Assembly (NCBI RefSeq): GCF_019311235.1 | Contig: NZ_JAHWDF010000007.1 | Location: forward strand, 62,001-126,000 | DNA: 64,000 nt | Origin: Mesonia aestuariivivens | GTDB taxonomy: Bacteria > Bacteroidota > Bacteroidia > Flavobacteriales > Flavobacteriaceae | Direction: 5' to 3' | Shown here: one piece after another, positions 48,681 through 57,658 of the stretch | Layout: the number at the start of each line of letters is the position of its first letter | Position numbering within the stretch: position 1 is the stretch's first letter | Position numbers and translations under genes: made by a program | The notes under the pieces: generated by a model | The model's input: the letters and a program-made list of their open reading frames with translations, nothing else | The model's database searches: none | What the model was told of the DNA's origin: nothing

Positions 48681-49073
48681 ATGGAAAATCACTTCAATAA
48701 AGTAAAAACATTTTTACTAGATTTAGAATATACAATTATCAAAGAAAATGAAGCTGAACAGCTCTTTATCGCCGAAAATTTAGAAGCAGGGATCACTAAC
48801 TTAATTATAGACTGCGAAGATCCTCTACTTATTATAGAGGTTTATTTATTCGACATCAAAAACAAAAATTTAGCAACAATTGAGAGTTTACTCATAAAAA
48901 ACCGTGATATTATTCACGGAGCCTTTGCCTTAGACGACAATGGACAAAAAGTATTTTTTAGAGATACCTTACAATTAGAAAATTTAGATTTTAACGAATT
49001 ACAAGCTACTTTATATTCATTAGAATTACTACTAAGTGAATACGCAGGTAATATTATAGCTTTTTCAAAATAA
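48681..49073 (+). CDS. YbjN-like small protein
   Basis: This 130-residue acidic protein has an alternating alpha/beta layout (FNKVKTFLLDLEYTI, LIIDCEDPLLIIEVYLFDI) resembling YbjN/type III secretion chaperone-like folds. Such proteins often precede PspA in Bacteroidota and are thought to act as protein-binding partners. It is the first gene of the PspA operon, 6 bp before pspA. Confidence 0.65.
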   Translation: MENHFNKVKTFLLDLEYTIIKENEAEQLFIAENLEAGITNLIIDCEDPLLIIEVYLFDIKNKNLATIESLLIKNRDIIHGAFALDDNGQKVFFRDTLQLENLDFNELQATLYSLELLLSEYAGNIIAFSK

Positions 49074-49079
49074 CAAACC

Positions 49080-49781
49080 ATGGGAATTTTTAAACGACTT
49101 TTTACAATAGGGAAGGCTGAAACCAATTCAGCAATTGATAAATTAGAAGACCCTATAAAACTTACCGAACAAGGTATAAAAGACTTAAAAAAAGATTTAG
49201 ACAATAGTTTACAGGCTTTAGCTGAAGTTAAAGCGATAGCCATTAGAAGTAGAAAAGAATTAGGTGAAAGTAAATCTAGAGCAGAATCTTATCAACAAAA
49301 AGCTGTTGCCATTCTTAAAAAAGCTGAAAGTGGAGCTATAGATAGTACGGAAGCCGATAGACTTGCTACAGAAGCTTTAAAGAAAAAAGATCAAGCTCAG
49401 CAGCAGGCAGCAACTCATCAAGAAGAGGTTAATAAATTTGATGGTAACATTTCTCAGCTAGAATCTAATATTCAGAATCTAAAATCTACAATTTCTAAGT
49501 ACGAAAACGAGCTTAAAACGCTAAAGGCAAGATCTAAAGTAAGTGCAGCTACCAAGAAAATAAATAAACAAGTTTCAGGAATTGATAGCAGCGGAACAGT
49601 AAGTATGTTAGAAAAAATGAAAGAAAAAGTGGCCGAAGAAGAAGCTCTAGCAGAGGCTTACGGTGATATTGCTAAACAAGGCAAAAGTGTTGACGACGAA
49701 ATTGATCAAGCCTTAGATAATACTGATACTAGTGCAGAATCTTCATTAGAAGCATTAAAAAAACAACTTAAAGATTCATAA
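49080..49781 (+). CDS. pspA: PspA/IM30-family membrane-remodelling protein
   Basis: This 233-residue protein is almost entirely coiled coil, starting GIFKRLFTIGKAETNSAIDKLEDP, the N-terminal amphipathic helix and helix 1 of PspA/IM30. Family members form ESCRT-III-like rods and rings that bind and repair stressed inner membranes. No PspF-type regulator is nearby. It is followed 2 bp later by the DUF4178 gene, which suggests a tightly coupled unit. Confidence 0.92.
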   Translation: MGIFKRLFTIGKAETNSAIDKLEDPIKLTEQGIKDLKKDLDNSLQALAEVKAIAIRSRKELGESKSRAESYQQKAVAILKKAESGAIDSTEADRLATEALKKKDQAQQQAATHQEEVNKFDGNISQLESNIQNLKSTISKYENELKTLKARSKVSAATKKINKQVSGIDSSGTVSMLEKMKEKVAEEEALAEAYGDIAKQGKSVDDEIDQALDNTDTSAESSLEALKKQLKDS

Positions 49782-49783
49782 TC

Positions 49784-50332
49784 ATGGGCTTTTTAAAAAA
49801 TTTATTTTCAAAAGAAAAAGAGCCTTCTTACGATAGTATAAGAATTGGGATTAAAGATCTAAAAACCGGATTTATTTTTGATTACGATCTTAGTTCTTGG
49901 GAGGTGCTTAATACTTATAAATATGATTGGGGAAATCATTTTTATACCTTAGAGTATAAAATTAGTAATGGTAGCCAAACCTTATTTTTAGGAGTCGAAG
50001 AAGACGATGAGTTACTTTTAACGTTAGGTAAAAAAATAAAGCTTAGTAAAATCGATAAAAATCTATCTACCGAACTTATTAATAATCAAAAGCCACCTCA
50101 GAAAATAATCTATCAAGATGAAACTTTTGTTTTGGAAGAAGAATCTCCTGGATACTTTTTAGATACCGCTAGAAAGCAGAGCGATTGGGAAGAGTTAATT
50201 AGCTGGGATTTGATTGGTCAAAATTCTCAAAATATTTTAACTATTGAACAATGGGCTAAAAATGAATTTGAAGGTAGTCTAGCTAAAGTAGTAAAAGAGT
50301 TTGAAATTAGTAACATTTTGCCCGTAAAATAA
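49784..50332 (+). CDS. DUF4178 protein
   Basis: This 182-residue protein fits DUF4178: two beta-rich repeats with IKDLKTGFIFDYDLSSWEV and LEYKISNGSQTLFLGVEEDDEL in the first half and VLEEESPGYFLDT in the second. There is no signal peptide or membrane segment. DUF4178 proteins are known as neighbours of PspA, DUF350 and polyamine genes; their biochemical role is not established. An accessory binding role at the membrane is inferred. Confidence 0.75.
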   Translation: MGFLKNLFSKEKEPSYDSIRIGIKDLKTGFIFDYDLSSWEVLNTYKYDWGNHFYTLEYKISNGSQTLFLGVEEDDELLLTLGKKIKLSKIDKNLSTELINNQKPPQKIIYQDETFVLEEESPGYFLDTARKQSDWEELISWDLIGQNSQNILTIEQWAKNEFEGSLAKVVKEFEISNILPVK

Positions 50333-50345
50333 TCCAATATTTATT

Positions 50346-51086
50346 ATGAAAAATTTCGCAAAGATAATTGCAGCTCTTTTAGTTGTTTCATTTATCACCC
50401 AATCTTGTAGAAATAGATCACATTCTAACCCTGCTAGTCCTACTCCTATTGCTATTTTAAAAGGGAAACTTAAAAATGAGCAAAATTACAGTATCATTTT
50501 AGAAGACATGGACGCTAAAAATCTAAATACGTCTTCTGAAAAATACCTTCATAAATATCAAATTTTAAAAGAAAGAAAAGATACCGTGCTCGTAGAAAGT
50601 ACAGAATGGTACCCTGTAACCTCCACCTATTTTAATAAACATATTGATGATTTAGGAATGGAGCTGGTTACTAAAGAAAATGGTAAAGTACACGAAGAAA
50701 CTGTTCCTGCAGGTTATCGTGGTTATGTAGGTAATAGCCAATACGGGCAATGGAGGCAGCATAACGGGCATTCTTTTTGGGAGTTTTATGGTCGATATAT
50801 GTTTCTTTCCCATGTATTTAATAGATTCAATAATCCTTACCGAAGAGATTATTATAATGATTATCGCACAAACTATTCAGGTAGAAGTTATTACGGTCCC
50901 AATGGCAGAAAAGTTTACGGCACTAGTACTTATACAGGAAAAAGTTCTTGGAATAGTAAAGACCAAAGCTTTAAAAACAAAGTAAGAAGTCAAGTGAAAC
51001 TTTCTAGCGCCCGCAGAGCACGTAGTGCATCAAGATCTTCAAGAAGCACTTCTTACAGATCAAGAAGCGGAGGCTTTGGTAAATAA
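50346..51086 (+). CDS. Lipoprotein with Tyr/Arg/Ser-rich C-terminal tail
   Basis: This 246-residue lipoprotein has its lipid Cys21 in ITQSCRN. The middle part (about 35-140) looks folded. From about residue 155 on it is rich in Tyr, Asn, Arg, Ser and Gly, ending in runs such as SARRARSASRSSRSTS and a terminal GGFGK. The tail is strongly basic and probably disordered, suited to binding anionic lipid, LPS or nucleic acid. It lies between the DUF4178 and DUF350 genes, the place where enterobacterial yjf-type clusters carry an exported DUF1190 protein; equivalence is inference only. Confidence 0.65.
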   Translation: MKNFAKIIAALLVVSFITQSCRNRSHSNPASPTPIAILKGKLKNEQNYSIILEDMDAKNLNTSSEKYLHKYQILKERKDTVLVESTEWYPVTSTYFNKHIDDLGMELVTKENGKVHEETVPAGYRGYVGNSQYGQWRQHNGHSFWEFYGRYMFLSHVFNRFNNPYRRDYYNDYRTNYSGRSYYGPNGRKVYGTSTYTGKSSWNSKDQSFKNKVRSQVKLSSARRARSASRSSRSTSYRSRSGGFGK

Positions 51087-51097
51087 AAAATAAGAAA

Positions 51098-51967
51098 ATG
51101 ACATTATCAGAAATTTCTACATTAATTTATAACGGACTCATTTATTTTGTCTTAGCATTCTTTATTTTCTTCATAGGAAAGAAAATATATCAACTCGTAC
51201 ATCGCGACATTTCTCTAAAACAAGAATTAGTCATTAAAGATAATCTAGCATTTACTCTTTCACATCTAGGTTACTTATCGGGTTTATTAATAATAATTGG
51301 TGGCAGTATTATAGGCCCTTCAGAGGGATTAGTAAATGATGTCATCGATATACTTAGTTATGGTGTATTAGGTATTATTTTACTAAATCTATCCATTATA
51401 ATTTCAGATAAAATAATTCTAAGGCATTTTTCAATTAAAAAAGAAATTATAGAAGATAAGAATGTTGGTGTAGGTGTTATAGAGGGAGCAATTTCTATAG
51501 GCTCGGGTTTAATAATTTTTGGAGCTATAAGTGGTGAAGGGTATTCATTACTACACGGCATAATTTCAACTCTTATTTTTTGGGCAATTGGTCAAGTTGT
51601 ACTCATTATCACGACTCGAGTATATAATATGATCACTAGTTATAATATTCATAAACACTTAGAAGAAGATAATTTTGCGGTAGGTATTGGTTATGCCGGA
51701 GCACTTATAGCAATTTCTATTATCATTAAATTCGGTATCTCAGGAGTATTTGAAGATTGGACCGATGTGGTTTATGAAGCAGGAGCAGAAATTTTGATTG
51801 GCTTATTACTTCTTCCATTAATGAGGTATTTAACAGATAAAATTCTATTACCTGGCGCAAATTTAACTGAAGAAATCATCAATCAAGAAAAGCCGAATAT
51901 CGGAGCTTCATTAATTGAAGGTTTTGCTTACATTGGTGGAGCAATTCTTCTTACTTGGTGTTTATAA
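51098..51967 (+). CDS. DUF350 inner-membrane protein
   Basis: This 289-residue protein has about eight hydrophobic helices arranged as two similar halves, each with a pattern like NLAFTLSHLGYLSGLLIIIGG and DNFAVGIGYAGALIAISIIIK, the DUF350 repeat. E. coli YjfL is a one-repeat relative encoded near a PspA homologue. Function is unknown; a transport or channel role has been suggested for the family. It lies 11 bp after the lipoprotein gene and 10 bp before the spermidine synthase gene. Confidence 0.82.
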   Translation: MTLSEISTLIYNGLIYFVLAFFIFFIGKKIYQLVHRDISLKQELVIKDNLAFTLSHLGYLSGLLIIIGGSIIGPSEGLVNDVIDILSYGVLGIILLNLSIIISDKIILRHFSIKKEIIEDKNVGVGVIEGAISIGSGLIIFGAISGEGYSLLHGIISTLIFWAIGQVVLIITTRVYNMITSYNIHKHLEEDNFAVGIGYAGALIAISIIIKFGISGVFEDWTDVVYEAGAEILIGLLLLPLMRYLTDKILLPGANLTEEIINQEKPNIGASLIEGFAYIGGAILLTWCL

Positions 51968-51977
51968 AGCAATTAGA

Positions 51978-53549
51978 ATGATAGATTTCAAGAAGGTTTT
52001 CAGTAAAAAATCTACTTTACTAAAAATTGCCATTTTCGCTACTGGTTTTTCTGGAGTTGTTGCAGAATATATACTTTCTACGCTAGCGACTTATTTTCTG
52101 GGAGATTCTATCTTTCAATGGATTATGATCATCTCATTGATGCTATTTTCTATGGGATTAGGTAGTAGGTTTAGTAAGTTTCTTCATAATAACCTATTAA
52201 ATAAGTTTTTATTAATAGAGTTTACTTTATCGCTTATTGTAGCATTTTCTCCATTAATTATATACTTATGCGCAGCATATACCGAGGCTTATGGCCTGCT
52301 CATTTACTTAATAGCAATAGCGATTGGCTTGCTTATAGGCCTAGAGGTTCCTTTAGTAATTAGAATAAACAATGATTTTGAAGATTTGCGCTTCAATATC
52401 TCTAATATTCTAGAAAACGATTACTACGGAAGTTTGTTAGGGGGTGTATTTTTTGCTTTCATTGGTTTACCACTTTTAGGTTTAATGTATACTCCGTTTG
52501 TATTAGGTCTAGCTAATTTCTTAGTGGCTTGCTTACTAATTACATTACTCTGGAAAGCTTTTTCTACCTCACAAAAGAAAAAATTAGTCCCAATTTCTAG
52601 TATCCTATTTATTTTATTAGTGGGTGGTTTTTTTATTGCTGAACCCATCATCTTATATGGTGAACAATCTAAATACCAAGATAAAGTAGTTTTCTCTAAA
52701 CAGACCGCTTATCAAAAAATAGTTATTACAGAATGGAAAGATGATTTTTGGCTTTATTTAAACGGAAATCAACAATTATGCAGTAGAGATGAAGTAATGT
52801 ATCACGAACCCTTGGTTCACCCAGCAATGCGTTTACATCCGCATCCACAAAACGTCTTGGTCTTAGGCGGTGGTGATGGTTGTGCAGTTAGAGAGATTTT
52901 AAAGTACGCGACTGTAGAAAAGATTAAACTTATCGATCTTGATCCAGAAATGACTAGATTAGGAAAAGAAAATAACATTCTGTCTCAGCTTAATAACAAC
53001 TCTTTAAACAATGATAAAGTTGAAATCGTAAATGCAGATGGATATGAATATTTAACCAATGATAAATCGAGTTATGATGTGATTATTATAGACCTTCCAG
53101 ATCCTCGAACTATAGAACTTTCTAGACTTTACAGTTTTGAGTTTTATAAAACTTGCTACCGAGTTCTTCGAAATAGAGGCGTGATTGTAACCCAAGCAGG
53201 AAGCCCCTATTTCGCTACCAAAGCATTTAAATGTATTGAAAAAACGATGAAGAAAGCAGGATTCAACACAGCAACTTTACACAATCAAGTAGTTACTATG
53301 GGAGAATGGGGATGGAGTTTAGGGCAAAAACAATCTCCTTATGACGATCTTTCTTCAACATTAAAAAATTTAAATTTCAACAACATATCTACTCAATGGA
53401 TTAATCACGAAGCCATGAGTTTAATTACTTCTTTCGGAAAAAACACGTATCTCGATAAAAATTTCGAAGCGCGTAAAATTGAAGTAAATAGTATTCATAA
53501 CCCTGTTCTTTATAAATATTATTTAAAAGGAAATTGGGACTTATATTAA
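51978..53549 (+). CDS. speE: Membrane-fused spermidine synthase-like protein
   Basis: This protein of about 523 residues has about seven membrane helices (1-215) followed by a Rossmann aminopropyltransferase domain. The SAM/dcSAM site is VLGGGDGCAVREI with an acidic LIDLDPEMT, and the catalytic Asp lies in IIDLPDPRT. The open frame could start at a TTG at 51915 inside the DUF350 gene; I chose the ATG at 51978 (MIDFKKVF), just after the DUF350 stop. The next gene encodes AdoMet decarboxylase, which makes the aminopropyl donor. The membrane part is unusual for a plain metabolic enzyme and suggests the product is made at, or moved across, the membrane. Confidence 0.88.
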   Translation: MIDFKKVFSKKSTLLKIAIFATGFSGVVAEYILSTLATYFLGDSIFQWIMIISLMLFSMGLGSRFSKFLHNNLLNKFLLIEFTLSLIVAFSPLIIYLCAAYTEAYGLLIYLIAIAIGLLIGLEVPLVIRINNDFEDLRFNISNILENDYYGSLLGGVFFAFIGLPLLGLMYTPFVLGLANFLVACLLITLLWKAFSTSQKKKLVPISSILFILLVGGFFIAEPIILYGEQSKYQDKVVFSKQTAYQKIVITEWKDDFWLYLNGNQQLCSRDEVMYHEPLVHPAMRLHPHPQNVLVLGGGDGCAVREILKYATVEKIKLIDLDPEMTRLGKENNILSQLNNNSLNNDKVEIVNADGYEYLTNDKSSYDVIIIDLPDPRTIELSRLYSFEFYKTCYRVLRNRGVIVTQAGSPYFATKAFKCIEKTMKKAGFNTATLHNQVVTMGEWGWSLGQKQSPYDDLSSTLKNLNFNNISTQWINHEAMSLITSFGKNTYLDKNFEARKIEVNSIHNPVLYKYYLKGNWDLY

Positions 53550-53552
53550 TTA

Positions 53553-53918
53553 ATGATGAATAAAAACCTTTCTTACAAACCTGTAGAAGCAGCTATATTC
53601 AATCTGAAGTTTTGGATTAGAAATATTGAACCTCAAGAAATTACTCCAGTTTTCGAAAAGCTATTAAAAGATACCGAATTCGGAATTTTAAATTTTTCTG
53701 AACACCATTTTCCCGTTAAAGGTTATACCGCATTGTGGCTCTTGGCAGAATCCCATTTAGCAGTACATACATTTCCCGATAATAACTATACTTACGTAGA
53801 ACTTAGCGGTTGTAATGAAAGTAAAACGGAAAACTTCAAAAATAAAATTCAAGATTACGAAGAAACATTGGGCTTATTTCAGATTAATCAAACAGAATTT
53901 TTTAATCCGAACTTCTAA
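53553..53918 (+). CDS. speH: S-adenosylmethionine decarboxylase
   Basis: This 121-residue proenzyme would cleave itself at Glu66-Ser67 in AESHLAVHTFP to form the pyruvoyl cofactor. His72 and Cys87 (LSGCNES) are the catalytic partners expected in the bacterial class 1B enzyme. It provides decarboxylated AdoMet to the upstream aminopropyltransferase, 3 bp away. It starts with a double ATG. Confidence 0.92.
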   Translation: MMNKNLSYKPVEAAIFNLKFWIRNIEPQEITPVFEKLLKDTEFGILNFSEHHFPVKGYTALWLLAESHLAVHTFPDNNYTYVELSGCNESKTENFKNKIQDYEETLGLFQINQTEFFNPNF

Positions 53919-53921
53919 GGA

Positions 53922-54947
53922 ATGAGAAAGATAAAATACTTTCTACTGGTAACCTTACTTTACATTGCCTCGGTAATTGCTATAGGATACATCGAAAGTC
54001 AAAATCCAGATGGTAATATAAAAGACATAGGAGATGCTTTTTGGTTTGCCATTGTCACCCTCACGACCGTAGGATACGGGGATTTATACCCGGTAACCAT
54101 TCTAGGAAAAATAATTGGACTAGTCCTTATCTTGGGTAGTATTGGGATTTTAGGAATTATCATTAGTGAAATTACCAATAAAATTAATAGCTATATGGAA
54201 AAGAAAAAAAACGGATTTTATGGTACCGATTTTAAAAATCACTACATCATTATAGGTTATAATGATTTTGCTTTAAAAGTTGGAAAAGAAATAATTAGTA
54301 CGGGGCATAAAATTGCTTTTCTCACCAATGCAAAAGATGATCTAGAAAAAATTAATACCCACTTTAATCATCAAAATTGTTTTAGTCTCCTGGCCGAATA
54401 TAAAGATGAAGAAAAATATGAAAAACTAAATTTCAAAGCTGCCAAAAGTGTATTTATTAATTTTGAAGAAGATGCAGATACACTTGTATTTGTACTTAAT
54501 GCAAAGAAAGCTTACCCTAACTTAGAATACGTTGCACTTTGTAATAACACAGAATTAAAAGGTACTTTTGAAAATGCTGGAGTAAAATATGTTGTATCAC
54601 CTTTAGAAGTAACCTCAAAATTAGTGGCTAGCTATATTTTTGAACCCGAAGTAGCTACCTATACTGAAGACTTAATATCTTCCAGTAAAAATAAAGAAGA
54701 CTCAGATATTCAGCAATATAAAATTTTAACCAATTCTTTCTACCACAACAAAAGCTTCAATACAGCATTTCACGAACTAAAAGATAATTATGATGCTATT
54801 GCCATTGGAGTAGTGAAAGATAATAAAGTATATAAAAACCCTTCTTCAGATTATATATTATCTATAAACGATTACATTATTCTAATTTCAAACGGAGCTA
54901 GCAAAAAAGGCTTAGAAGATATTTTTGGAATTAAAGAAGGTAAATAA
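53922..54947 (+). CDS. Two-helix potassium channel with RCK/TrkA domain
   Basis: This 341-residue protein has TM1 at about 5-24, a pore loop with the K+ selectivity filter TVGYGD, and TM2 at about 63-83. A cytoplasmic Rossmann RCK (TrkA-N) domain (about 105-225) and a TrkA-C domain (about 260-335) follow, the MthK/Kch layout. The RCK start HYIIIGYNDFA replaces the usual GxGxxG Gly with Tyr-Asn, so nucleotide control may be altered. It begins 3 bp after the AdoMet decarboxylase gene; polyamines are well-known blockers of K+ channels, so the pairing may be functional. Confidence 0.92.
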   Translation: MRKIKYFLLVTLLYIASVIAIGYIESQNPDGNIKDIGDAFWFAIVTLTTVGYGDLYPVTILGKIIGLVLILGSIGILGIIISEITNKINSYMEKKKNGFYGTDFKNHYIIIGYNDFALKVGKEIISTGHKIAFLTNAKDDLEKINTHFNHQNCFSLLAEYKDEEKYEKLNFKAAKSVFINFEEDADTLVFVLNAKKAYPNLEYVALCNNTELKGTFENAGVKYVVSPLEVTSKLVASYIFEPEVATYTEDLISSSKNKEDSDIQQYKILTNSFYHNKSFNTAFHELKDNYDAIAIGVVKDNKVYKNPSSDYILSINDYIILISNGASKKGLEDIFGIKEGK

Positions 54948-54964
54948 ATTAAAATTTTCTAAAA

Positions 54965-57658
54965 GTGAACTTCAACCCAAAAGACGTTTTTAATTATTTT
55001 AGAGATTGCTATCAGCTAGATTATAAAGAGTTTACCATTAATAATATTCTTTCTAGCAAATATCCCTATAAGTGGTTTGTAAAAACGGAAGAAGAATTTC
55101 TTGCTGAAGATTTACCGATCATCCCTTACAACAATAAAAAGGTATTAGCTTTAGAAAAAGAGATATCGCTTTATAATTTAGAAAAAAAACTGTTTTACGG
55201 GTGTTTTTTTATTTTAGGCAATAGTAAAAATCCACTTATTAAAGACAAACGAATTTGCGCTCCACTCCTACTCTTTCCGGCTCAAATAGAAACCCTAGAC
55301 GAAGAAAGATTTTTGAGAATTGAACAAGATAATTTCGACATTAATAGGTCTGCCCTCAGTTTACTAGACTTAAGAGAAGAGCATATTAAAAAAGATGAAT
55401 TTGTACAATTACTCTCAGAACAAATTCAAAACAAAAATTATATTGGCTTAAAGAGCTTTTTAGAAAAATATGTTGCCAATATAGAAACCGAAGAGCTCTT
55501 GCTATTTCCAACAGTTTGGTCTGCAGAAAAAACTAGAAATTTTTTAGCTTCAGATAAAGTTGAAGATGACAGCTATCATATGGTTCCGGCAGCAGGAACC
55601 ATATTAGTTGAAAAGTCTGAATCTCCACTAAGGGTTTTAAACGACCTGAAAGAAATGGCAGAATTAGAAAAATTTAATTCTAGTTTGTATCAATTATTAA
55701 GCAGTGATCGACAAGAATTTTCATTTCAGCAAAGCGTTTATAAAACTCGATTAAATACAGATCAATATAAAGCACTCCAAAATGCATATCGTTATTCAAA
55801 TTCTGTAATTGTAGGACCACCAGGAACGGGAAAAAGCTATACTATCACTTCAATAATTTCTGATGCGGTGATTAATAATCAATCGGTTTTAGTAGTTTCT
55901 AAAACAAAGCAAGCTGTAGAAGTTTTACGCCAAATGCTTGAGAAAGATTTTAAGTTAAAAAACTATCTAATTCATACCACTGGGCATAATTACAAAGTAA
56001 GTTTAAAAGCTAAAATCAAACGTTATTTAAGTGGAATTTCAGCAAAAATAAATACCAATTTTGACCTAGAAAAAGTCAATCAGCTTTCTGGGCAACTCGA
56101 TCTACTCGAGCAAGAATTTGAAGCATATATTGAAAAAGAACTTAAAAGATCTGATCTCGAATTTTCTCCAGAACTTAGCTTGTGGGAAAAATGGCAACAA
56201 TTTTATCTTAATACACTAACTTACAACGGAGAGAAATTATGGGTGATTTTTGAAAAAATAAATCAGGTTTTAGAGCAATTAGAAAAAGAAGCGAGTCTAT
56301 ATTCTAAACGAAAAATTGCCCTTAACATTAAAAATAATTCCCATCGCTATCGTGATGAAATATCAACATTCTATGATGCGCTCGACACTTCTAGTTTTTC
56401 AGCCTATAAACGCATTCTAAAACAAGTAGATTTTGAACATGTTTTAAAAGCTTTTCCCATTTGGTTGGCTAATCTATCAGATTTAAATTCGGTCTTACCT
56501 TTAAAAGCAGACTGCTTCGATTTGGTGATTATCGATGAAGCCACACAATGCGATATCGCTTCTGCTTTACCAGCATTATATAGAGCAAAACGGGTGGTGA
56601 TTGCAGGTGACCCTAACCAATTAAGGCATTATTCTTTTGTAGCAAAAGCGCAACAATTCAGCCTTCAAGAAAAATATAATTTACCAAAAGATAAGATTTT
56701 TGATTATCGAAACCGAAGTGTTTTAGACTTATTTATTTCTAAAATGAAACACCAAGAACAAATTACTTTTCTACGTGAACATTTTAGATCTACACCATCT
56801 TTAATAGAATTTAGTAACCGCCAGTTTTACGATAATCAGTTAGAAATCTTAAAATCTACACCTACTCACATTGAAGAGAAACAAATAGAATTGATTAAAG
56901 TTAAAGGTAAAAGAAATCGGAAAGGAGTAAATGAAATTGAAGCTGAACAGGTACTACATCAATTAAATAAAATTATAGCAGCCTACAAAGATGAAACATT
57001 AAAACCATCTATCGGAATTATTTCGCCTTTCAATAGCCAAGTAACACATCTTAATAAATTATTATCGAAGCATTACGAGTTAGCCACTCTGCGCCAATTT
57101 AATATTCTTTGTGGAACGCCATATAACTTTCAAGGTTCTGAGCGCGAAATAATTCTAATATCATTTGGTGTTTGCCCAGAAACTCATCATTCTGCTTATA
57201 TTCATTTAAACAAACCAGAAGTCCTTAATGTAGGTATCACTAGAGCAAAATCTTTACAAATAGTAATTACATCGGTAGGTAAAAATGAGCTAAAAAATGA
57301 TTCTTTATTTTATGAGTATTTAACCTTTATCGAAAATTTCAGTCACTTTAATGAAGAAGAAAATACGATTGATCAATTTCAAGATGAAGTAGTGAAAGCT
57401 TTACAACAAGAGGGAGTTAAAGGTATTAAATGTGGTTATCCTGTTGCCGGAAACCTTTTAGATATTTTAGTTACGAATAACAATAAAAATTACTTTATAG
57501 ATTTAATTGGTTATTCTGGAGCTTATCGAGAAGCTTTTAGTTTAGAACGTTACAAAACTCTAGCCAGAACCGACATTAAGACTTTACCCCTACATTATAG
57601 TTTTTGGAAAAAAGATTCAAAAAAAGCGATTGATAAATTGATGGAGTTTATTTCATAA
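54965..57658 (+). CDS. UPF1-like superfamily 1 helicase with C-terminal nuclease-like domain
   Basis: This 897-residue protein has a roughly 260-residue N-terminal region of unknown fold, then an SF1 helicase core: Walker A GPPGTGKS (284-291), DEAT (524-527), GDPNQLRHY, REHFRSTPSLIEFSN and the last motif LNVGITRAK. The final about 100 residues (from DQFQDEVVKALQQEGV) look like a Vsr/PD-(D/E)XK-type endonuclease fold, with LLDILVTN and FIDLIGYSGAY as the possible active strands. The start is a GTG at 54965, 17 bp after the channel gene. Similar helicase-nuclease fusions are found in defence and repair contexts; its link with the membrane genes before it is unexplained. Confidence 0.82.
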   Translation: MNFNPKDVFNYFRDCYQLDYKEFTINNILSSKYPYKWFVKTEEEFLAEDLPIIPYNNKKVLALEKEISLYNLEKKLFYGCFFILGNSKNPLIKDKRICAPLLLFPAQIETLDEERFLRIEQDNFDINRSALSLLDLREEHIKKDEFVQLLSEQIQNKNYIGLKSFLEKYVANIETEELLLFPTVWSAEKTRNFLASDKVEDDSYHMVPAAGTILVEKSESPLRVLNDLKEMAELEKFNSSLYQLLSSDRQEFSFQQSVYKTRLNTDQYKALQNAYRYSNSVIVGPPGTGKSYTITSIISDAVINNQSVLVVSKTKQAVEVLRQMLEKDFKLKNYLIHTTGHNYKVSLKAKIKRYLSGISAKINTNFDLEKVNQLSGQLDLLEQEFEAYIEKELKRSDLEFSPELSLWEKWQQFYLNTLTYNGEKLWVIFEKINQVLEQLEKEASLYSKRKIALNIKNNSHRYRDEISTFYDALDTSSFSAYKRILKQVDFEHVLKAFPIWLANLSDLNSVLPLKADCFDLVIIDEATQCDIASALPALYRAKRVVIAGDPNQLRHYSFVAKAQQFSLQEKYNLPKDKIFDYRNRSVLDLFISKMKHQEQITFLREHFRSTPSLIEFSNRQFYDNQLEILKSTPTHIEEKQIELIKVKGKRNRKGVNEIEAEQVLHQLNKIIAAYKDETLKPSIGIISPFNSQVTHLNKLLSKHYELATLRQFNILCGTPYNFQGSEREIILISFGVCPETHHSAYIHLNKPEVLNVGITRAKSLQIVITSVGKNELKNDSLFYEYLTFIENFSHFNEEENTIDQFQDEVVKALQQEGVKGIKCGYPVAGNLLDILVTNNNKNYFIDLIGYSGAYREAFSLERYKTLARTDIKTLPLHYSFWKKDSKKAIDKLMEFIS

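What the first reader, a model, noticed from the sequence alone, without database searches (positions are those of the whole stretch)
48681..57658. PspA, polyamine, K+ channel and helicase operon: candidate undescribed system
Nine plus-strand genes with gaps of 2-17 bp combine a YbjN-like protein, PspA, DUF4178, a basic-tailed lipoprotein, DUF350, a membrane spermidine synthase, AdoMet decarboxylase, a K+ channel and an UPF1-like helicase/nuclease. PspA with DUF4178, DUF350 and polyamine genes has been noticed in comparative genomics, as far as I recall, but the mechanism is open. The addition of an RCK channel and helicase suggests a response in which membrane damage triggers polyamine-controlled ion flux and nucleic-acid processing, as in stress or anti-phage defence.
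Basis: partly seen in the sequence, partly recalled or inferred. Interest (0 to 1): 0.75.

Follow-up and report, generated by a model that had tools for sequence, protein, structure and literature searches.

The report
Envelope operon with lysine-tipped lipoprotein tail
Eight of the nine genes form a known kind of bacterial membrane-stress operon; its exported lipoprotein ends in a conserved lysine-tipped tail that may be the missing target of the operon's membrane-bound polyamine enzyme, while the helicase gene next door is at most a loose associate.

Summary
The nine genes are present as described. Genes 1-8 (CesT/Tir, PspA, DUF4178, lipoprotein, DUF350, membrane SpeE, SpeD, K+ channel) resemble published PspA operons (Ravi 2024). 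The helicase is not a conserved member: of 66 other membrane-SpeE loci held, one (L175) has it nearby and one (L050) a 56-residue remnant.

New here is a rule about the acceptor. All 39 ligase-free membrane-SpeE loci of the first set encode an exported protein whose last residue is lysine. The carrier varies: the Bacteroidota lipoprotein (...RSRSGGFGK), a DUF4178 fusion, short membrane peptides. In a test with the prediction written down first, 22 of 22 new ligase-free tails ended in Lys, although 5 of 28 new SpeE genes had no tail beside them. Beside ATP-grasp peptide-polyamine ligases, tails end in Gly, Ser or Leu (0 of 21 in Lys). Charge statistics over 38 proteins put the SpeE domain outside the cytoplasm, on the tail's side.

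Best reading: SpeD and membrane SpeE aminopropylate the tail's C-terminal lysine. Inferred, not shown.

The parts
48681..49073 (+). CesT/Tir-like chaperone (CesT_Tir_1)
   Evidence: Pfam E 2.2e-48; found upstream of PspA in L002-L005, L008, L012, L047
49080..49781 (+). PspA/IM30 family protein
   Evidence: Pfam E 1.1e-44; one PspA_IM30 match in the whole genome at E <= 0.001
49784..50332 (+). DUF4178 protein
   Evidence: Pfam E 2.6e-18; intracellular location as predicted by Ravi 2024
50346..51086 (+). Lipoprotein with Ser/Arg-rich C-terminal tail: the tail protein
   Evidence: No Pfam family at E <= 0.1; lipobox Cys read by eye in the 23 aligned rows; 24 homologues, mean pairwise identity 42%
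50871..51083 (+). Basic low-complexity tail, residues 176-246, net charge +16
   Evidence: composition; linker of variable length
51057..51083 (+). Tail tip RSRSGGFGK-COOH, proposed acceptor site (C-terminal Lys)
   Evidence: last two residues GK in 24 of 24; last six columns 92% mean identity
51098..51967 (+). DUF350, eight long helices arranged as four TM-short helix-TM units
   Evidence: Pfam E 4.9e-55; model pLDDT 86.5; no PDB match at E <= 0.001
51978..53549 (+). Membrane aminopropyltransferase: predicted 7 TM helices, then a spermidine-synthase domain from about 52662
   Evidence: NCBIfam PRK03612 563.6 bits over cut-off 472; fold match to spermidine synthases; topology
53553..53918 (+). 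SpeD, S-adenosylmethionine decarboxylase
   Evidence: Pfam E 2.1e-13; NCBIfam TIGR03330 44.4 bits, below its cut-off of 75.65; AESH site read, its meaning recalled
53922..54947 (+). Two-TM K+ channel with TVGYGD filter and RCK/TrkA_N domain
   Evidence: Pfam Ion_trans_2 and TrkA_N; filter read
54965..57658 (+). SF1 helicase with a C-terminal nuclease-like domain; neighbour, judged not part of the system

Best explanation
Genes 1-8 are a PspA-linked envelope module. SpeD makes decarboxylated SAM (dcSAM) in the cytoplasm. Gene 6 is an aminopropyltransferase whose catalytic domain is predicted to sit outside the cytoplasm behind seven TM helices. Its acceptor is not free putrescine but the side-chain amine of the C-terminal lysine on the exported tail of the gene-4 lipoprotein. 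The product would be N-epsilon-aminopropyl-lysine, a protein-borne copy of spermidine. In sister operons an ATP-grasp ligase is present and the tail mostly ends in Gly or Ser, so the polyamine would be joined to the carboxyl end instead. The capped cationic tail then probably acts on its membrane partner DUF350, a four-unit pore-like protein, while CesT/Tir and PspA on the inner face and the K+ channel respond to membrane damage. Shown here: gene content, the tail-tip rule and its test on new genomes, the charge pattern of the enzyme. Inferred: catalysis on the lysine, dcSAM reaching the outer side, DUF350 as pore and target. The helicase is a separate gene.
For: Tail tip: GK-COOH in 24 of 24 lipoproteins of 42% mean identity. 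All 39 first-set ligase-free membrane-SpeE loci have a K-ended tail (found; recounted). Outside the lipoprotein family the carriers are: a DUF4178-TM-tail protein in L060, 78-79-residue peptides in L013, L061, L112, short peptides in L113, L114, L117, L128, mini-lipoproteins in L115 and L129, a 536-residue protein in L116. New genomes, prediction noted first: 22 of 22 ligase-free tails end in K, and the one locus with a ligase (L245) ends GG. With SpeE plus ligase, tails end GG in 3 of 3 (L180, L181, L245); L180 and L181 sit inside a K-tail clade of SpeE (clade 100/98, inner forks 89/76 and 92/76). Ligase-only tails: 11 G, 6 S, 1 L, 0 K of 18. Background Lys ends: 19% of low-GC and 5.6% of high-GC ORFs, tails included. 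Topology: mean K+R 2.4-3.5 in the four predicted inner segments, 0.05-0.26 in the three outer loops, 38 proteins. Of 17 small tails measured all have one hydrophobic stretch and 24-56 residues after it. The SpeE domain keeps GGGDG, YHE and DxxDP. No GSP_synth ligase in the window's genome at E <= 0.001.
Against: No modification was observed. 5 of 28 new SpeE genes had no tail beside them: three second copies (L221, L222, L223) and L229 and L243, where no DUF350 was found either. The K-ended ORF of L230 has no visible TM. Tails were not picked blind: several non-lipoprotein tails of the first set were found by their K ending, and in L230, L231, L236, L237 and L241 of the new set the frame was chosen by eye among overlapping ORFs after the ends were in view. 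SpeD was not found in the held flanks of L006 and L055-L058. In the topology table inner loop 4 is rich in acid (4.4 D+E) and the segment after TM7, predicted outside, holds 2.1 K+R; the AlphaFold model, from 12 sequences, draws TM5-TM6 as one 51-residue helix at low confidence, so six helices and an inner domain are not excluded. A domain outside needs dcSAM export, for which there is no direct evidence. The genome can probably make putrescine (arginine-decarboxylase-like protein below its NCBIfam cut-off, agmatinase above), so an ordinary acceptor exists. Ligase-type tails share an inner SRGGFG-like motif, so that motif is not specific to SpeE.
Confidence: 0.45

Rival explanations
1. The tail tip is not modified. 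The Arg/Ser-rich tail with its terminal lysine is a plug or ligand, a ball-and-chain that binds DUF350, the K+ channel or the SpeE domain, and SpeE makes or senses free polyamine.
For: Variable linker plus invariant tip is a tethered-ligand layout; DUF350 has a four-unit, pore-like build.
Against: Does not explain why the last residue follows the enzyme type: Lys with SpeE alone, Gly, Ser or Leu beside an ATP-grasp ligase.
Confidence: 0.2
2. Membrane SpeE is a spermidine synthase acting on free putrescine and perhaps exporting the product; PspA-linked polyamine shields the membrane.
For: Catalytic motifs are intact; the genome has an arginine-decarboxylase-like gene and agmatinase; NCBIfam calls the family polyamine aminopropyltransferase.
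Against: Tail rule; predicted outer location of the domain. Ravi 2024 allows aminopropylation of other substrates, citing Li 2019. From memory, Li 2019 reports that such fusions do not replace SpeE in E. coli and that spermidine is absent; that paper was not held.
Confidence: 0.2
3. The acceptor is an amine-bearing lipid or glycan of the envelope, and the tail protein only positions the enzyme.
For: Membrane anchoring of the enzyme; link to PspA and membrane stress.
Against: I noticed no recurring lipid-modifying gene in the loci, but did not search for one systematically; it does not explain the lysine tip.
Confidence: 0.08
4. One reading: a nine-gene defence or stress system in which the helicase-nuclease executes nucleic-acid processing.
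For: 17-bp gap to the channel gene; helicase one gene after the channel in G657 and a helicase remnant before DUF4178 in L050; partial similarity of the helicase to defence helicases such as PDC-S37 and MkoC and, far below the cut-off, ProA.
Against: Intact helicase in 1 of 66 other membrane-SpeE loci held (6-21 kb each). In the helicase loci compared, no neighbour is shared except between the sister genomes G033 and G639 and the channel of window and L190. The closest operon (SpeE 68%, Labilibaculum) has no helicase in its locus, and G117 with the closest helicase (63%) has no DUF350 match. In the defence library PspA gives coiled-coil-like matches and SpeE one match to mad2 over 147 residues (E 2e-21); genes 1, 3, 4, 5, 7 and 8 give none.
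Confidence: 0.05

Closest known systems
CesT/Tir-PspA operon with 7TM-spermidine synthase, DUF350, DUF4178 and Ctha_1186 lipoprotein (second group of Ravi et al. 2024, PMC11237479; abstract and passages seen)
   Same: Genes 1-6 match by kind.
   Different: The passages seen do not put SpeD and the K+ channel in that group, and mention neither the lysine tip nor the side of the membrane of the SpeE domain.
E. coli yjfIJKLMC and ygiBC: PspA family, DUF350, DUF1190 protein and ATP-grasp peptide-spermidine ligase (RefSeq names; Pederick 2023 seen only as citation and one citing sentence)
   Same: yjf: PspA partner, DUF350, tail protein with Ser/Gly/Arg tail, polyamine enzyme; ygi: tail protein and ligase only.
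   Different: ATP-grasp ligase instead of SpeE/SpeD; tails end GG, not K.
Soluble spermidine synthases (1inl, 2e5w, 3o4f)
   Same: Fold and catalytic motifs.
   Different: Here fused to predicted seven TM helices, with the catalytic domain predicted outside the cytoplasm.
Deoxyhypusine modification of eIF5A (from memory)
   Same: A lysine side chain turned into a polyamine-like group.
   Different: Uses spermidine and an aminobutyl group on an internal lysine; other enzyme.

Membership tests
Ravi 2024 group 2 PspA operon | CesT/Tir-PspA dyad | tested here: met
   Pfam
Ravi 2024 group 2 PspA operon | DUF4178, lipoprotein, DUF350 and TM-spermidine synthase in one operon | tested here: met
   operon by gene spacing only; the lipoprotein was not matched to a Ctha_1186 model (no Pfam hit)
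Ravi 2024 group 3 / yjf-type | ATP-grasp glutathionylspermidine-synthetase-like ligase | tested here: not met
   none among the nine proteins, no PF03738 match in the genome at E <= 0.001
Peptide-spermidine ligase system | Tail protein ending in a small residue (Gly or Ser in 17 of 18 here) | tested here: not met
   tail ends GK
Spermidine synthase | Fold and catalytic motifs | tested here: met
Spermidine synthase | Aminopropyl transfer to putrescine | not testable with these tools
   needs enzyme assay
Canonical Psp response | PspB, PspC or PspF beside pspA | tested here: not met
   none among the nine proteins; the rest of the genome was not searched for them
Known anti-phage defence system | Match to a PADLOC system | tested here: not met
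   single-protein partial matches only
Known anti-phage defence system | Protection from phage | not testable with these tools
   needs plaque assays

The most novel reading that the evidence does not exclude
Bacteria carry a general protein modification outside the cytoplasm in which a membrane aminopropyltransferase turns the C-terminal lysine of an exported tail into a spermidine-like cap. It has an interchangeable twin in which an ATP-grasp enzyme joins a polyamine to a C-terminal glycine. Both feed a four-unit DUF350 pore and PspA. This would be the missing function of the 'polyamine-independent' SpeD/SpeE pairs and would need a dcSAM transporter.
Probability: 0.35. Interest if true: 0.88.

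Novelty: new variant of a known kind. Interest (0 to 1): 0.7.

Why it matters
What membrane-bound SpeE modifies, and hence the role of the SpeD genes beside it, is open: Ravi 2024 speaks of polyamine level or aminopropylation of other substrates, citing Li 2019. The lysine-tip rule names one candidate residue on one candidate protein, so a single mass-spectrometry experiment can answer it. It would also explain why PspA operons carry polyamine genes and would unify the SpeE-type and ATP-grasp-type operons. For the finding as given, it takes the helicase and the anti-phage reading out of the core.

Tried and rejected
Helicase as a ninth member: rejected on distribution and neighbourhoods, with the two exceptions L175 and L050. 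Anti-phage system: PADLOC gives only partial single-protein matches. Helicase on phages or plasmids: 7 phage records, none over 80% of the query; 1030 plasmid records with a match, one over 80% of the query, Persicobacter (48%), with no operon genes within 12 kb. A DUF350 fold match in the PDB: none at E <= 0.001. Viral contigs with the SpeE profile: 27 loci, not followed. GC content: no clear break at the operon.

Rows dropped before counts. Ligase loci without an identified tail: L097, L105, L118, L127. DUF350 loci where neither a ligase nor SpeE was hit: L063, L098, L104, L108. L109 and L110: no anchor found. L010: lipoprotein present, contig ends before SpeE (kept only in the lipoprotein counts). 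L219: partial SpeE match, not examined. Second SpeE copies in L221, L222 and L223 count as without tail. Plasmid hits not fetched: 4 of 12 SpeE records (same genera as fetched ones) and most of 147 ligase records (10 fetched). The 39 first-set loci include close kin (five Labilibaculum-type loci, G300/G488, G033/G639, L115/L129, L117/L128), so the counts are not independent events. The Fisher test (39/39 against 0/20) was made before L245 and treats related rows as independent; I do not rely on it. The middle of the output was cut; one search recounted every tail end and scanned all 66 loci for the helicase afresh.

Papers. Ravi 2024: abstract and passages. PMC12568646, PMC12506659, PMC10948618, PMC11107197, PMC10407285: passages only. 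Pederick 2023: citations and a citing sentence only; which peptides were used was not seen. Li 2019: not held, recalled. No paper describing a lysine-tipped tail or its aminopropylation appeared in the searches; the library holds only openly licensed papers.
Full report
Observation. All nine ORFs are there on the plus strand. Gaps are 2-17 bp.

What is conserved. Relatives of this DUF350 were found in 12 loci of a public genome set, in 6 of 120 genomes of the family and in 18 of 395 of the phylum. Genes 1-8 in this order occur in L002-L005, L008, L012 and L047. Others lack the CesT-PspA dyad in the held flank (L009, L011, L049-L051, L058, L060), SpeD (L006, L055-L058) or the channel (L006, L048, L057-L061). 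The steadiest block is DUF4178, tail protein, DUF350 and membrane SpeE. Genes 1-6 are the second CesT/Tir-PspA group of Ravi 2024, so the operon as such is a known kind. Two genomes of the window's own genus have no membrane SpeE at E <= 1e-80 (G053, G653), so the operon is patchy even among close kin.

The helicase. It is found in 4 of 120 family genomes (E <= 1e-30) and 4 of 395 phylum genomes (E <= 1e-60). In 21 other genomes with DUF350 or membrane SpeE there are five matches: three near full-length (G657 50%, G033 37%, G639 36%) and two over about 320 residues (G185, G444). A fresh scan of 66 other membrane-SpeE loci (6-21 kb each) found one intact copy, L175 (G657), one weakly transglutaminase-like gene (below Pfam's cut-off) after the channel, and in L050 a 56-residue remnant of its C-terminus just upstream of DUF4178. 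Among the ten helicase loci compared, nothing else is shared except between the sister genomes G033 and G639, and the channel of window and L190. Its best relative (63%, G117) has no DUF350 match, and the best operon relatives have no helicase in their loci. I conclude that it is a neighbour; a loose association is possible.

The tail. The lipoprotein ends RSRSGGFGK. Over 24 homologues with 42% mean identity the last six columns average 92%, and the last two residues are GK in all 24, behind a Ser/Arg-rich linker of variable length. In L060 no separate lipoprotein was found; DUF4178 is extended by a membrane helix and a tail ending SSRGFGK. Far from this family, membrane-SpeE operons carry other single-anchor proteins with the same kind of end: 78-79-residue peptides in Gastranaerophilales (L013), Ensifer (L112) and a GC-rich genome of the phylum (L061), short peptides in Gemmatirosa (L113), Tritonibacter (L114) and Novosphingobium (L117, L128), mini-lipoproteins in Burkholderia (L115, L129, here on the strand opposite to SpeE), and a 536-residue protein in Alteromonas (L116). 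All 39 ligase-free loci of the first set have a Lys end (recount).

Contrast. Tails beside ATP-grasp ligases without membrane SpeE end in G (11), S (6) or L (1), 0 of 18 in K: E. coli YjfM and YgiB and sixteen others. RefSeq names YjfC and YgiC peptide-spermidine ligases. Where membrane SpeE, SpeD and a ligase occur together (L180, L181) the tail ends SFRSFGG, and in the SpeE tree this pair sits inside a clade of K-tail loci (100/98 for the clade, 89/76 and 92/76 inside).

Test on new genomes. I wrote the prediction down, then searched 242 genomes of the class, of which 26 had a match including the window's own, and examined 28 new membrane-SpeE genes in 26 loci. 22 ligase-free tails: all end in Lys (tips such as RFYHK, YYHK, GGFGK, RSTRGK; one, L230, without a visible anchor). 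One locus with a ligase, L245: tail ends STRSYGG, as predicted. Five SpeE genes had no tail of their own: three are second copies followed by an oxidoreductase-like gene, two (L229, L243) showed no DUF350 either. The rule on the residue held every time a tail was identified; the rule that a tail is always there did not. In five loci (L230, L231, L236, L237, L241) I chose among overlapping frames by eye with the ends in view, so the test was not fully blind.

Chance. Lys is last in 19% of low-GC and 5.6% of high-GC ORFs of 120 residues or more in 75 loci, tail proteins included. A count of eight separate carrier families gives a product of about 4e-9, but rows are related, small carriers may share an origin, and the first set was partly read with the ending in mind. 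The new-genome set is the better evidence.

Side of the membrane. In 38 membrane-SpeE proteins the positive charges lie in the N-terminus and loops 2, 4 and 6 (means 2.4, 2.5, 2.8, 3.5 K+R) and hardly in loops 1, 3 and 5 (0.13, 0.05, 0.26), which means seven helices with the enzyme domain outside. Loop 4 is also acidic (4.4 D+E), and the stretch after TM7 holds 2.1 K+R. The AlphaFold model agrees on helices 1-4 and the last one, but draws helices 5-6 as one. Of 17 small tail proteins measured, 10 have more positive charges in the 12 residues before the hydrophobic stretch than after it, 5 the same and 2 (L232, L242) fewer; the lipoproteins have a lipobox. Tails are therefore most likely on the outer side too. 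An amine-oxidase-like flavoprotein (Pfam tested in L117, L226 and L233), whose product in most of these loci begins with a twin-arginine-like signal by eye, accompanies many membrane-SpeE genes, which fits amine chemistry outside the cytoplasm.

DUF350. The model shows eight long helices as four TM-short helix-TM units, each with a Glu...Asn motif. DUF350 relatives of about 70 residues (L113, L114, L117) equal one unit and YjfL, by length, two, which suggests a pore of four units. No solved structure matches. This is inference.

Mechanism. SpeD makes dcSAM; membrane SpeE transfers its aminopropyl group to the terminal lysine of the tail; the cap makes the tail spermidine-like. The alternative enzyme, the ligase, would join a polyamine to a terminal Gly. 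The capped tail may act on DUF350, with PspA and CesT/Tir inside. Catalysis, dcSAM export and the effect on DUF350 are not shown. The genome has an arginine-decarboxylase-like gene and agmatinase, one further, weaker spermine-synthase-domain match elsewhere (E 1e-15), and no ligase match.

Verdict. A known operon type with a neighbour gene taken for a member; the lysine-tip rule found on the way did not turn up in the paper searches named under Tried and rejected, and makes the open question of the SpeE acceptor directly testable.

Noticed in passing
L221, L222, L223, L226, L227, L232-L242: Membrane-SpeE genes are often followed by a ~500-550-residue flavin amine-oxidase-like protein with, by eye, a twin-arginine-like start (Pfam tested only in L117, L226, L233) and a ~355-residue protein (no Pfam family in L233); second SpeE copies in L221-L223 pair with this enzyme and have no tail.
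   Followed up: partly
L226:5241-6041 and L227:6726-7589: A second protein of these two loci also ends ...YFGK, so one SpeE may have two lysine-tipped partners.
   Followed up: no
L050:7790-7957: A 56-residue remnant of the helicase C-terminus lies just upstream of DUF4178 in G002.
   Followed up: partly
window:51098-51967 and L113, L114, L117: DUF350 seems to occur as one, two or four repeats of a TM-short helix-TM unit, suggesting a four-unit pore; no PDB fold match.
   Followed up: partly
L006, L007, L011, L050, L051: A protein of about 1600 residues lies just upstream of DUF4178 where CesT-PspA are not adjacent; in L006 and L007 a PspA lies about 8 kb upstream.
   Followed up: no
window:47934-48605: A DUF4403-like gene is divergently transcribed just upstream of the operon.
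   Followed up: no
L125, L119, L121 and E. coli YjfM/YgiB: DUF1190 tails contain an inner SRGGFG-like motif followed by 9-23 further residues ending in Gly, as if the SpeE-type tip had been extended.
   Followed up: partly
L130-L156: 27 IMG/VR contigs encode relatives of the SpeE domain; the matches start at residue 232 or later, so not the TM part.
   Followed up: no
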